In this document: one piece after another, positions 4,445 through 21,836 of the stretch
Layout: each line of letters starts with the position of its first letter
Position numbering within the stretch: the stretch's first letter is position 1
Notes under the pieces: generated by a model
What the model was told of the DNA's origin: nothing
The model's input: only the letters and a program-made list of their open reading frames with translations
Databases searched by the model: none
Assembly: GCA_000827325.1 (NCBI GenBank)
Contig: KN832870.1
Span: 434,001-498,000 of the forward strand
Source: Oidiodendron maius Zn
Taxonomy: Eukaryota > Ascomycota > Leotiomycetes > Myxotrichaceae
Length of the DNA stretch: 64,000 nt
Direction: 5' to 3'
Position numbers and translations under genes: made by a program

Positions 4445-5797
4445 ATGGCCCAAAATTATGACGTGATTATTGTTGGTGGAGGTCCCGTAGGACTGTTCCT
4501 CGGATTGACGCTCGCTCTCGAAGATATTCGTGTTCTGGTTATTGAGCAGGAGTCAGATATACCGCAAAGTCCGAGGGCACTCATGTAGTTCAATAATCAA
4601 GTCCCGTTTTACCACTAGCAGAACTGATGTAGAGGAATAGGAACTTCCCTATTGTCCTGAATGAGTTTGCCAAGGTCGGCATTCTGGACCAAGTCGTCGC
4701 CGCCGGGTTCAAGAACACGGCGGGGCTCTGCTTCAGAACTCCATACTCCGGTACCAACACCGTCCTGGCAAAGATCCCACCGGGGAAATCGTCGAAGGGC
4801 TTAATTGATTATGGGGTTCAACTTAGCCAGGCAAAATTGTGCGCTATTATGCGGAATCGTGCCCTCCAATCCAAGTATTTCGAAATACGCTACAATACAC
4901 GATATACTTCTCATCACGAAGACGGAGATCTAGTGCATGTAAACTCTGAAAGCGCATCCAGCGGGCCGTTGAAACTCTCTGCCTCATTCATCGTCGCCTG
5001 TGACGGGGCCAACTCGCAGGTGCGGGACGCCATGGATATCCCATTCGAGGGCTTCACGTGGAAAGACTGGCGATTTGTGGCGGTCAACGTTTATTATGAC
5101 TTTGCTAAACATGGCTACCCGGCTGCGAACCACGTCATTGACCCCGAGGACTGGGCGGTGATTGTGAGGGCCAGCAGCGTGGAAGAGGGTCTATGGCGTA
5201 TTGCCATGGGCATTTCGCCAGATGTGAAGCCTGAAGAGGTCGAGTCGTATGTCGTGGCAAAAGTCGAGCGTTTGATGCCTGGCCCACGGCCCCTAGACTA
5301 TAAAATAGAGGCAGTCAGCCCTTACTGGGCTCATGAAAAGGTGGCACTCAAATTTCGAGCGGGAAGGGTTGTGTTATGTGGTGATGCTGCACACGTACGT
5401 TAAGCTCATGATACTGTTCCCCCCTCAACGAACGTCGAACTTACCTGTTGACCAGTTGAACAATCCTCTCACCGCACTGGGCCTAACAACTGGCCTCGTC
5501 GACGTGGCGGTTCTCTCGCGTGTCCTTCCTCTGGCGCTTGCACCAGAGAGCCAGAGGACCGGGAGATGGAACAAACTCCTTGACCAGTACGCGACAATCC
5601 GCCGTGAAGATTTTGTAAAACGCGTGCAAAAGCAGGCCATTGACGGCAAGAACCGAATCCATTCCATGGATGCAAAAGTTGTTGCCGAGCGGGACGACTT
5701 CTTCAACATGTTGAATAAGAGCCCGGGATTTGGCAATTTTATCGCCTCGATGATGATGGAACCGCTACCAGAAGATCTCTGGCCTACGCCTTGGTAA
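4445..5797 (+). CDS. FAD-dependent monooxygenase, PHBH/phenol hydroxylase fold (3 exons, 411 aa)
   Basis: Model join(4445..4584,4641..5394,5456..5797). Typical class A flavin monooxygenase motifs occur in order: N-terminal Rossmann VIIVGGGPVGL (residues about 6-16), the DG motif CDGANSQVRDAM in the middle, and the second FAD motif GDAAHLNNP, which spans the second splice junction. Splicing is needed because introns 1 (56 nt) and 2 (61 nt) carry stops. At 411 aa it lacks the C-terminal thioredoxin-like domain of true phenol hydroxylases. Such enzymes use NAD(P)H and O2 to hydroxylate aromatic substrates, which would suit tailoring of a tyrosine-derived product. A strong donor GTAAGT overlaps the stop; splicing 5794-5834 would replace the last residues and end at about 5861, but the intron would be only 41 nt. 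Substrate unknown. Confidence 0.85.
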
Positions 5798-6299
5798 GTA
5801 TATCTTTCCATTGACTACCCGCTGCTGTACACAGTGGAGAGGCTGACGAGGTTGCCTAGGAATAATTTTGTCTCATCTATCAAGAAAATATTTGTAGTCA
5901 TTCGAATTATATCTATGATGATATTCTGGAAGATCCAAGTAGCGCTTTCATGACAGTGAATTAATCAGTGGTCATAGAATATTAATCTTTGAGCGGGATG
6001 GATTAGTTAACACGGTATTTCAGAGTCATAACTTAAGTAGAGATTCATATGGTAGAAATAAAATTGGGCCGAGCTATGACTATTCGATATTATCCTATAT
6101 TATCTTGTATGATAGATACTTCAGACATATCTCAATTGATTAACCGGAATAGACCATACCGCGAACACGGGCATATGATTACGTTGAGTAGAGGTTACTT
6201 AATAGTCAATTTGAGTAATTTGATTAAGCCGGAGTCCATTTATAGATATTTTATTGGAGAAATAGCTAGTATGTAGTGAGATATAGAGTATAGCCATTG
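5798..6299. other. AT-rich convergent 3' intergenic region
   Basis: This lies between the 3' ends of the convergent monooxygenase and MFS genes. It is AT-rich, with no gene or element recognised. Confidence 0.5.
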
Positions 6300-8071
6300 T
6301 CAATACGCCGCGCGTATGAAGTAAGTCATGACAACCCCAACCCCGACGAGCGCCGCAAGGCCAAAAAATACCACCTGCGGTAGGAGGGACACCGTCCACG
6401 CATAGATCAGGTTGATGGCCGGAGGGGACACAAGTCTTGTCAGTGCCTGCAGTGAACCTAAAATGCCCATCAAATTGCCAACGCGGTCAGCCGAAACCAT
6501 CATGGACATCGACGCCTGACTGGTCGACAAGCCCATAGAACTAAGTGAGGAGAGGACGCCCGCGGCAATAAACCAGAAGGCGGTGGGGGCAACCCCAAAT
6601 CCAATGTACCCTAATATATCAGAGAAAAGGGCAAGGCGCAACAAAGGCGGGTGGTCCTGTTTGACCTCCCGGTCTTGGGCGGATGATGGTCCGGGCGGTG
6701 CGGGCTTAGTAAATACTCGCATGAGCAAACGAAGCAGCACCGTAGTGGAGATGGTTCGGAAGACATTGATAATCGAGATGAAGTTGCCGGTCTCCATCAT
6801 GCCCCATTTGAATTTTGCTTGCGGGTAAAGCATCATCACATCCATCGCGCCAACGGAAGTTCCAAACATAATAGTATTGATGCCCATGAGCAGGATCAGG
6901 TTTCGGTAATTTTGCCGACTTTCATCAGGACTCTGCGGGTCAAAAAGGGCGCCCAGGAAATTGAATGAGAGCAGAGATTTAAGGGATATGGCCCACCGTG
7001 ATGTTTGTAGGCGTAAAGGAGGCTCAGGAGCTTTCTGATCCCTTCCGACGTGAGGCAACGACTCAGGAAGAATGAGTAGGCAGAGTAGGCTGACGATTCG
7101 ACACAATACATTGTAGACTAAGATAGCTGAAGGTCTCTCGGGGCCGCTGAGCCGGCTCAAGGCGCTACCAAGTGCTGGACCCACGGCCATTCCGCAGAAC
7201 ATGCCACTCTGGATCCAGCCCATAGCGACAACTCGGTCCTTGTTGGTGGTACTATCCGTCACATATGATGATGCGGTGGCCATCAACAGTGGAAAGGAGC
7301 CGCTGAGACCATCGACCGCAAAGGACAAGAACAGCCAACGGTAGTCCATGGATGCGGGAAAGGCAACGACGAGAAGCATGATCACTTCCGAAATCAGAAT
7401 ACCGATGCCATTGATGGCCATGACTTTGACTCGGCCGGCTCTGTCACTCAGTCGGCCCAGATAATAACTCATGATGGCGCCAATGATGCCTGTTGTCAGG
7501 TCTCGGTAGGTCGACATGAAGGCCACATCAGCTAGCACGCGGGGAGTCGAACATCTTGGATCATAAACACCCATGGAAATGCCGGCACCGGTTGCGTTGC
7601 TGTTGCTCATGGGAGAGCCTGACATCGCACTGCCTGATGGTTCCCCTCCCATTCCCCCTGCGGGCATTTCGTGTCGTCGCGCACTCATACCTCCACCCAT
7701 AGCCGACGGGTCATCGTCGAGCATCTGGCGACAGATTAGGGTTACAATGACACTCACCCTGGGTACCATAGTCAGGCCAGAGGCAAGGCTGGCGAGAAAG
7801 AAGTAGGGCAAAAGCCGATAATGCTGCAAACGCACAAGTGTATCTCAGTACCGTGTCCGGGTGGCCATACGCGGGAGGAACAACCTACAGATGGCCGGGC
7901 TCGCAATCCACCCCCGACATGATGCTTTGGGGTCGAGATCCTGAACGGCTGAGACTCGCCAGAGGGGCCACCAGGGCTTTGGTTGTTTCGTTCCTCGAGA
8001 GGAATGCCTTCATCGACAGCGACATCGACATCTTCTTCATCCGCCACTATCTGGTACGCGTGGTTGTGCAT
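6300..8071 (-). CDS. MFS transporter with Met-rich first loop (2 exons, 568 aa)
   Basis: Model complement(join(6300..7823,7889..8071)). Exon 1 encodes an acidic cytosolic N-terminus (EEDVDVAVDE). A 65-nt intron (GTAGGT...TTTGCAG) follows, and exon 2 begins at the first membrane helix (HYRLLPYFFLASLASG). The signature between helices 2 and 3 (YYLGRLSDRAGRVKVM) is the MFS G-x3-D-R-x-G-R motif, and about twelve hydrophobic segments follow, as in tetracycline-resistance-like fungal MFS proteins. The extracellular loop after helix 1 (residues about 95-150) is expanded and rich in Met and Gly (AMGGGM, HEMPAGGMGG, SAMSGSPM). It is divergent from the TMEM205-like gene across a 653-bp shared promoter. 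It may export a cluster product or a metal complex; this is inference. Confidence 0.85.
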
Positions 8072-20916: not shown

Positions 20917-20924
20917 TGTCAGCA
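20917..20924. promoter_or_regulatory. TGTCAGCA site in the divergent DJ-1 promoter
   Basis: This site lies midway between the two divergent hydratase-like genes (208 and 220 bases from their starts), so one site could serve both. It belongs to the shared motif set. Confidence 0.4.
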
Positions 20925-21143
20925 GACGACACCCATGCTGTTTCATAGCTGAAGAGCAACATCTTGATCGCGGAACCTCAGAAGATCACAGTACTTGTAT
21001 CAGTAAGACGCAAATTATTTTAAAGAGAAAGCTAAAGTCCAATATTCATTAACCTGACCCTTAATTCCTGTTCTCGGCCTGCCAAAATACTCCAGAGAAG
21101 TTTCCCACCTCCGCATCTTAATTTGTCTGCCGAAGCCACGGGA

Positions 21144-21836
21144 ATGTCAGCCACTGGGAAACGTTACAACGTTGCTATCCTTGTCTTCAACGGTGTTGAT
21201 ATCCTTGACTTTGCGGGTCCAATAGAGATCTTTTCGCATGTCTCCCTCAACAAGAACCCGGATAATCCAGATCGCATCTACAAATGCCTCACAGTTGGCC
21301 GCAGCCGTACTATTCGTGCTGCAGATAGCCTGACGGTAGCGACAGACCTTCTTATCCAAGACGCCTTACTTGACCTGGACCAATTCGATATGCTTGTCGT
21401 GCCGGGGGGTCCTCCTGCAGTTTTAGCACCGCTACTGACAGCAGATAGTCTTGAGCTGGAGCTTGTAACTGCGTTCGCAAAACTCGAACCCAAGAGTCTG
21501 GGGTCGGAGCCTCGCACTATCTTCTCTATCTGCGTGGGCGCTTTCTTCCTCGGTGCTGCCGGAATCTTGGGTGGATTAAAAGTGACGACGCATCACCGTG
21601 CTCTTGAGCGGCTGGGTCAGATATGCCGCGGCGTGGGAAGTGAACCTGCCTCTATCATTGAGAAGAGATTTGTCGACGGTGGGCTCAGCAAGCTGGGCCG
21701 GGTTTCAGTGATTACCGCCGGCGGCATCAGTAGTGGCTTGGATGCATCGCTTTACATTGTTAGCAGGCAGGTATCAAAAGATATGGCGGATTTTATCTCA
21801 AGAGTCATGGAATATGAATCTAGGGTCGAAAAGTGA
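21144..21836 (+). CDS. DJ-1/PfpI protein, candidate isonitrile hydratase B (230 aa)
   Basis: A single exon; the first ATG is at 21144 and the frame upstream lacks another. Layout parallels the neighbour: NVAILVFNGVDILDFAGPIEIF with Asp22, VVPGGPPAVLAPLL (residues 85-98), IFSICVGAFFLGAAG with nucleophile Cys130, and a C-terminal TAGGISSGLDASLYIVSRQV. Here the residue after the Cys is Val, not the Thr found in the neighbour and in bacterial isocyanide hydratase, so catalytic behaviour may differ. The two look like an old duplication kept as a divergent pair. Both may act on the pathway isocyanide, or one may have changed substrate. Confidence 0.82.
   Translation: MSATGKRYNVAILVFNGVDILDFAGPIEIFSHVSLNKNPDNPDRIYKCLTVGRSRTIRAADSLTVATDLLIQDALLDLDQFDMLVVPGGPPAVLAPLLTADSLELELVTAFAKLEPKSLGSEPRTIFSICVGAFFLGAAGILGGLKVTTHHRALERLGQICRGVGSEPASIIEKRFVDGGLSKLGRVSVITAGGISSGLDASLYIVSRQVSKDMADFISRVMEYESRVEK

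What the first reader, a model, noticed from the sequence alone, without database searches (positions are those of the whole stretch)
4445..21836. Candidate isocyanide biosynthetic cluster built around an ICS-dioxygenase fusion
Seen: a DIT1/PvcA-TauD fusion lies within 13 kb of a P450, two MFS transporters, an MDR reductase, a FAD monooxygenase, a TMEM205-like protein and two DJ-1 proteins. Known: PvcA/PvcB chemistry makes (vinyl) isocyanides; DIT1-DIT2 and XanB-XanG pair an isocyanide synthase with a P450; isonitrile hydratases belong to the DJ-1 superfamily. Inferred: one pathway making a probably Tyr- or Trp-derived isocyanide, oxidatively coupled by the P450. The content differs from the xan cluster (no methyltransferase seen) and from crm (no NRPS-like part on the synthase).
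Basis: partly seen in the sequence, partly recalled or inferred. Interest (0 to 1): 0.85.

Follow-up and report, generated by a model that had tools for sequence, protein, structure and literature searches.

The report
Xanthocillin-type isocyanide gene cluster, extended
A mould carries a cluster of genes related to the one that makes the antibiotic xanthocillin, with an extra flavin enzyme and a shared DNA switch in front of several of its genes; it is a new variant of a known kind and predicts a modified product.

Summary
In detail: an intact isocyanide synthase-dioxygenase (ICS-TauD) fusion lies among all the genes named. The cluster is best read as xanthocillin (xan)-type, not a separate invention. 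The fusion is 55-59% identical to the five listed proteins named XanB, the P450 51-63% to listed XanG, one DJ-1 protein 51-53% to DJ-1 domains predicted in one chain with XanB-like synthases. Lack of a methyltransferase does not exclude xan: P. expansum lacks them too (PMC8406171). Two things go beyond the finding. First, the flavin monooxygenase is of PnpA/HspB type; relatives lie near ICS or XanG-type genes in four other genomes by locus tag, while listed Aspergillus/Penicillium hits reach only 37%. Second, TGCTGAC, core of the AfXanC site, ranks first of 3960 7-mers in the cluster's intergenic DNA; five of eight sites form TGCTGAC-N6-YGCAT, found 12 times in the 45.9 Mb genome. Best reading: a tyrosine-derived xanthocillin-like bis-isocyanide, further hydroxylated. 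Substrate, product and regulation are inferred. New variant of a known kind.

The parts
1786..3126 (+). bZIP-type regulator gene, candidate XanC equivalent; intron 1910-1960, a last intron ending at 2969 (donor 2480 or 2684)
   Evidence: Splice model; Pfam bZIP_1 E 2.4e-4 but below the curated cut-off and covering the basic region mainly. Orthology to XanC not tested.
4057..4115 (+). Three TGCTGAC sites upstream of the FAD monooxygenase
   Evidence: the site at 4098 is one mismatch from TGCTGAC-N6-YGCAT.
4445..5796 (+). FAD-dependent monooxygenase, PnpA/HspB subclass; introns 4585-4640 and 5395-5455
   Evidence: PF01494; model; F. musae J7337_010048 75%; PDB profile hits PnpA 3e-83 and HspB 2e-66.
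6300..8071 (-). MFS transporter
   Evidence: PF07690; start by sequence.
8725..9434 (+). TMEM205-like (DUF4149) membrane protein
   Evidence: PF13664 E 6e-18.
9660..9677 (-). TGCTGAC-N6-YGCAT site between the TMEM205-like and MDR genes
9838..10960 (+). MDR-family reductase (LovC / quinone reductase type)
   Evidence: PF08240 and PF00107; PDB relatives LovC 1e-14 and quinone oxidoreductases.
11211..12813 (-). Cytochrome P450, XanG/Dit2 type; a small 3' exon (11211-11276) is read by eye
   Evidence: PF00067; Xylogone 85%, listed XanG 51-63%; next best match in this genome 31% over a fragment.
13102..13119 (+). TGCTGAC-N6-YGCAT site in the P450/MFS intergenic region
13542..13559 (+). TGCTGAC-N6-YGCAT site; contains the exact AfXanC 8-mer on the other strand
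13757..15720 (+). Second MFS transporter, several exons; ends approximate
   Evidence: PF07690.
16181..16875 (-). Mostly helical protein of unknown function, about 220 aa
   Evidence: No Pfam match at 0.001; single-sequence model of a 188-aa piece, pLDDT 69; no PDB fold match at E 0.001 or better.
17125..17142 (+). TGCTGAC-N6-YGCAT site upstream of the synthase
17461..19701 (+). Isocyanide synthase-dioxygenase fusion, XanB type, 725 aa; intron 18092-18154
   Evidence: PF05141 and PF02668; tree.
19987..20709 (-). DJ-1 protein A, isocyanide hydratase-like
   Evidence: PF01965; InhA E 1.3e-8 with the SVCTG cysteine motif aligned; 37-40% to XanA-type domains.
20907..20924 (-). TGCTGAC-N6-YGCAT site between the two DJ-1 genes
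21144..21836 (+). DJ-1 protein B, XanA type
   Evidence: PF01965; 51-53% to the DJ-1 domain in one chain with an ICS in P0053-P0055, 43-46% to that with XanG in P0146 and P0170; weaker match to InhA, E 2e-5.

Best explanation
A xanthocillin-type cluster of a filamentous ascomycete, probably a Leotiomycete. The ICS domain converts L-tyrosine to an isocyanide and the TauD domain desaturates it with loss of CO2 to a vinyl isocyanide; the XanG-type P450 couples two units to a xanthocillin-like bis-isocyanide. The PnpA-like flavin enzyme then (or beforehand) hydroxylates the phenol rings, and the MDR reductase may reduce a quinone-type product. DJ-1 hydratases turn isocyanide into formamide (modification or self-protection), and MFS proteins export. 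A bZIP protein acting at TGCTGAC-N6-YGCAT switches the set on. Shown here: gene content, homology, linkage of flavin gene, P450 and synthase elsewhere, motif. Inferred: substrate, reaction order, product, regulator-site pairing.
For: Synthase 73% to Xylogone, 55-59% to the five listed proteins named XanB; in a 26-row tree its clade plus the lichen/Dothideomycete clade is sister to Eurotiales XanB (100/99). P450 85% to Xylogone, 51-63% to listed XanG, and the only close one found in the genome. XanA-type DJ-1 next to the synthase. Locus tags: F. musae 010048 flavin, 010050 P450, 010053 ICS; Caeruleum 000811 P450, 000818 ICS, 000820 flavin (49%); Geoglossum 007090 ICS, 007092 flavin; Endocarpon 07115 P450, 07121 flavin. 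TGCTGAC first of 3960 7-mers, 8 sites against 0.51 expected; composite site 12 in the genome, 5 here, reversed control 4; 0 of 5000 random draws reached the shared GCAT spacing.
Against: No product, expression or binding data. The exact AfXanC 8-mer occurs only twice in the window, about the chance number. The 7-mer background is mostly coding DNA, so intergenic make-up is not fully controlled. The composite motif was defined after looking at the sites. The bZIP match is below Pfam's cut-off and was never compared with XanC. The flavin gene was not among the 120 listed of 990 hits, by name or contig length, for Xylogone, Cudoniella or Bisporella, and lies on other contigs than the ICS-P450 pair in Variospora and Usnochroma, so it is not a fixed part. 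MFS, MDR, TMEM205-like and the helical gene were not tested for linkage. In a larger quick tree (38 rows) the union of the two non-Eurotiales synthase clades had support of only 74.
Confidence: 0.78

Rival explanations
1. A plain xan cluster: product is xanthocillin itself, and the flavin gene, MDR and first MFS are neighbours without a role in the pathway.
For: XanB and XanG are called the two essential enzymes (PMC8406171, passage); ICS-P450 pairs without a listed flavin gene occur in Xylogone, Cudoniella and Bisporella; the MFS1/TMEM205 intergenic region has only a two-mismatch site, a grade expected about ten times per window by chance.
Against: The flavin gene has three TGCTGAC sites upstream and relatives near ICS or XanG-type genes in four genomes by locus tag.
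Confidence: 0.2
2. The P450 acts on a monomer or couples by another bond, so that the product is not a xanthocillin dimer (for instance a dityrosine-like wall precursor as in dit clusters).
For: XanG and Dit2 are homologues (PMC5974471, passage), and several P450 hits are named Dit2.
Against: The synthase carries the TauD domain of the XanB type, and a XanA-type hydratase and transporters are present, which fits a secreted metabolite; Dit1 is a single-domain synthase (PMC5974471, passage).
Confidence: 0.12
3. Chance neighbourhood of unrelated metabolic genes around an ICS.
For: The MFS, MDR and P450 families are large.
Against: Linkage elsewhere and the shared site.
Confidence: 0.02

Closest known systems
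xan (xanthocillin) cluster, Aspergillus fumigatus and Penicillium
   Same: ICS-TauD fusion, Dit2-type P450, DJ-1 hydratase, an in-cluster bZIP-type gene, and the core of the AfXanC site in intergenic regions.
   Different: No methyltransferase found; an added PnpA-like flavin monooxygenase, MDR reductase, two MFS, a second DJ-1 and a helical protein; a longer composite site; the synthase lies outside the Eurotiales clade.
Fusarium musae genes J7337_010048-010053 (listed as hypothetical proteins)
   Same: Flavin gene (75%), P450 (76%) and ICS-TauD (64%) within six locus tags.
   Different: One gene instead of three between flavin gene and P450, by tag count; the other genes were not seen.
crm cluster (CrmA, ICS-NRPS-like)
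   Same: Isocyanide synthase domain.
   Different: No NRPS-like part here; CrmA makes a valine-derived isocyanide (PMC9381783, start of abstract in search listings).
dit1/dit2 clusters
   Same: ICS paired with a Dit2-type P450.
   Different: Here the ICS is fused to TauD and the cluster has transporters, hydratases and a flavin enzyme.
PnpA (PDB 6AIN) and HspB (7DA9)
   Same: Closest solved relatives of the flavin enzyme.
   Different: Bacterial catabolic enzymes (recalled); the substrate here is unknown.

Membership tests
xan-type BGC | ICS-TauD synthase close to XanB | tested here: met
   55-59% to five listed proteins named XanB; sister group to Eurotiales XanB, 100/99, less firm (74).
xan-type BGC | XanG/Dit2-type P450 in the cluster | tested here: met
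   51-63% to listed proteins named XanG.
xan-type BGC | XanA-type isocyanide hydratase | tested here: met
   51-53% to the DJ-1 domain predicted in one chain with an ICS in three records; SVCTG motif of DJ-1 A aligned with InhA.
xan-type BGC | XanC bZIP regulator | tested here: inconclusive
   bZIP basic region below Pfam cut-off; no XanC sequence was available to compare.
xan-type BGC | AfXanC site AGTCAGCA in promoters | tested here: inconclusive
   Core 7-mer enriched; the exact 8-mer only twice, both in cluster intergenic DNA.
xan-type BGC | XanE and XanF methyltransferases | tested here: not met
   No methyltransferase domain in the proteins scanned; not a required feature, since P. expansum lacks both (PMC8406171).
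xan-type BGC | XanD | not tested
   Text seen says only 'uncharacterized domain'; the TMEM205-like and helical genes were not compared with it.
xan-type BGC | Makes xanthocillin or derivatives | not testable with these tools
   Needs chemistry.
crm cluster | ICS fused to NRPS-like domains | tested here: not met
   Only PF05141 and PF02668 in the fusion.
dit cluster | Single-domain Dit1 with Dit2 | tested here: not met
   TauD domain fused.

The most novel reading that the evidence does not exclude
The flavin enzyme hydroxylates the ring carbon that bears the vinyl isocyanide chain (ipso, para to the phenol OH), as its nearest solved relatives PnpA and HspB do with their substrates (chemistry recalled). 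That would give a dearomatised p-quinol isocyanide, or cleave the chain and release hydroquinone, and the MDR protein would reduce the quinone. The result would be a second branch of xanthocillin chemistry spread over several ascomycete classes outside Eurotiales, governed by an 18-bp composite bZIP site.
Probability: 0.22. Interest if true: 0.68.

Novelty: new variant of a known kind. Interest (0 to 1): 0.5.

Why it matters
The xan cluster has been worked out in Aspergillus and Penicillium. This places the same core in what is probably a Leotiomycete, with relatives in Fusarium, lichens and Dothideomycetes, and names one recurrent extra enzyme whose loss should change the product, so the missing chemistry becomes testable. 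It also gives a precise candidate for the further residues that the authors of PMC8406171 considered might be needed beside AGTCAGCA for XanC binding (passage).

Tried and rejected
Rejected: 'not xan because no methyltransferase' (P. expansum lacks them). Rejected: the GMC oxidoreductase at 23.2-25.1 kb as a member; the intergenic region before it (21837-23174) has no TGCTGAC site, the nearest lying inside its coding region at 24777. The left flank (L012, 10 kb) has no TGCTGAC site. Copper-type words TGTGCTCA and TTTGCTCA (recalled) gave no site in the cluster's intergenic DNA. Structure of the helical gene: model of modest confidence, no significant fold match. GCF numbers of Nickles et al. 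could not be assigned: the words FAD and monooxygenase do not occur in the main text, and its supplementary tables were not seen, so this cluster may already be one of their families.
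Full report
What is there. The window lies in contig 1 of a 45.9 Mb genome in 58 contigs that holds matches to the ICS domain at three loci. Best named protein hits for synthase and P450 are to Xylogone sp. PMI_703, so I take the host to be a Leotiomycete; this is inference (classes of organisms are recalled). The fusion protein is 725 aa after removal of one intron and carries DIT1_PvcA and TauD domains; its TauD half matches PvcB and a related dioxygenase of known structure, and its ICS half matches PvcA weakly. 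H547 and D549, the HxD motif, are invariant among 26 aligned rows.

Additional genes. A bZIP gene lies at 1786-3126. Its basic region matches bZIP_1 with E 2.4e-4, below the curated cut-off, and the match stops early in the zipper. Published XanC proteins also lack typical zipper leucines (PMC8406171, passages). That is a resemblance, not a test of orthology. A gene of about 220 aa between the second MFS and the synthase has no known domain.

Relation to xan. Of 326 homologues found for the fusion, the best 120 were listed; five of these are named XanB and are 55-59% identical. The P450 search listed 120 of 220; proteins named XanG reach 51-63%, Xylogone 85%, F. musae 76%. In the window's own genome the next P450 is 31% identical over a fragment. 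DJ-1 B is 51-53% identical over 199-232 residues to a DJ-1 domain predicted in one chain with an ICS-TauD in three records (two from A. fumigatus, one named Emarellia grisea) and 43-46% to that predicted in one chain with XanG in two Penicillium records; DJ-1 A is 37-40%. DJ-1 A aligns its SVCTG motif with that of InhA isonitrile hydratase. In an ICS tree of 26 rows (25 of the 120 listed, plus the window) the window falls with Xylogone, Cudoniella, Bisporella, Trichothecium, Fusarium and one unnamed row (100/100), next to a clade of Caeruleum, lichens, Geoglossum and Dothideomycetes; together they are sister to the Eurotiales XanB (100/99, rooted on two Dothideomycete rows). In an earlier quick tree of 38 rows that union had only 74.

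The flavin enzyme. Of its 990 hits, 120 were listed. They are headed by Fusarium at 74-75%, then Geoglossum, Endocarpon, Plenodomus, lichens and others mostly at 57-68%; the best listed Penicillium protein is 37% and of a longer type. Linkage by locus tag: F. musae 010048 with 010050 (P450) and 010053 (ICS); Geoglossum simile 007092 with 007090 (ICS); Caeruleum heppii 000820 (49%) with 000818 (ICS) and 000811 (P450); Endocarpon 07121 with 07115 (P450). Equal listed contig lengths suggest linkage in three more (356963 Plenodomus; 783083 Phaeosphaeriaceae PMI808; 2454256 unnamed), which is weaker since contig names are not shown and the contigs are long. Against it: in Variospora and Usnochroma the flavin gene is listed on a different contig from the ICS-P450 pair, and none was listed by name or contig length for Xylogone, Cudoniella or Bisporella. 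In a quick tree of 22 rows the cluster-type flavin enzymes form one clade (99) apart from seven fungal enzymes at 41-43%, and the window's protein sits with an unnamed row (84) and Fusarium (99). In this genome the next relative is 36% identical. A profile of 14 members finds PnpA (3e-83) and HspB (2e-66) as nearest solved structures, far ahead of the next at 1e-25. Both are recalled to hydroxylate a ring carbon para to the OH with loss of its substituent. So two reactions are open: ortho-hydroxylation to a catechol, as in xanthocillin Y-type compounds (recalled), or ipso attack. I put unspecified ring hydroxylation first only because the product class is known.

Shared switch. In the 5.8 kb of intergenic DNA from bZIP to DJ-1 B, TGCTGAC occurs 8 times against 0.51 expected, first of 3960 7-mers present (P 6.7e-8; about 5e-4 if multiplied by all 8192 7-mer pairs, my arithmetic). 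The background was the rest of the window and 50 kb of the same genome, mostly coding, so base make-up of intergenic DNA is not fully controlled. The word is the core of the AfXanC site AGTCAGCA on the other strand, taken from the paper before the count; the exact 8-mer occurs twice in the window, about as often as chance, both times in the cluster's intergenic DNA. Five of the eight sites carry GCAT at the same distance, and 7 of 8 carry CAT at +15; for GCAT, none of 5000 random draws of eight places reached five, while the CAT count was not tested this way. The composite pattern occurs 12 times in the genome, 5 of them here; its reversed control gave 4. The pattern was written after seeing the sites, so the genome count describes rather than tests. 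The intergenic DNA between MFS1 and the TMEM205-like gene holds only a two-mismatch site (8235), a grade of which about ten per window are expected by chance and 19 of two or fewer mismatches were found. The region upstream of the GMC gene has none, which suggests the right border.

A swap of partners. Cudoniella and Bisporella have synthases of the window's clade, but their P450s group with Zopfia, Coniosporium and Eurotiales XanG (100/100), away from those of the window, Xylogone and Fusarium. Holding seven P450s (window, Xylogone, F. musae, F. fujikuroi, one unnamed row, Cudoniella, Bisporella) together is rejected (p-AU 3.7e-6). The group was named after a first tree, and F. fujikuroi's synthase was not in the ICS tree. 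So synthase and P450 lineages seem to have been recombined at least once within this cluster type.

Literature. The three architectures, ICS-TauD among them (36.2% of fungal ICS), are described in PMC10153163 (abstract, passages, sections 20, 21 and 31 read) and PMC5974471 (passages). Passages of PMC13068945 and PMC11898546 were seen for xan gene names only. Searches (20 of 30 listed) showed no paper that, by title or start of abstract, describes a flavin monooxygenase in a xan-type cluster; full texts and supplementary tables were not read for this.

Verdict. A real, co-regulated-looking xan-type cluster with a recurrent extra tailoring enzyme: a new variant of a known kind.

Noticed in passing
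L010:3993-6974 (-) and L010/L011 junction (contig 22, 228993-236152): A second ICS of this genome, without TauD in the part scanned, lies near a separate NRPS-like gene (AMP-binding C, PP-binding, TRI-like transferase), an unfused crm-like arrangement; Nickles et al. describe the unfused form for GCF 8, called Fusarium-specific.
   Followed up: partly
L008/L009 (contig 14, 124403-125313, -): A third ICS of the genome, with an MFS gene about 3.4 kb away and no XanG-like P450 match near it.
   Followed up: partly
window 44560-56900 (-): Hybrid PKS-NRPS: KS, AT, DH, MT and KR pieces followed by condensation, AMP-binding, PP-binding and reductase domains; an MDR gene at 60-61.3 kb could be a trans-acting enoyl reductase.
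   Followed up: partly
window 32841-34733 (-): HET-domain protein with TPR repeats between the two metabolite clusters.
   Followed up: no
window 23175-25099 (+) and 26210-27625 (-): GMC oxidoreductase and a class III aminotransferase to the right of the cluster, without the shared site in front of the GMC gene.
   Followed up: partly
P450 proteins P0140 and P0142 against synthases P0008 and P0003: Bisporella and Cudoniella pair a synthase of the window's clade with a P450 of another clade, which suggests exchange of partners (AU p 3.7e-6).
   Followed up: yes
window 4057-20924: Seven of eight TGCTGAC sites carry CAT at +15, pointing to a composite site longer than the published 8-mer.
   Followed up: yes
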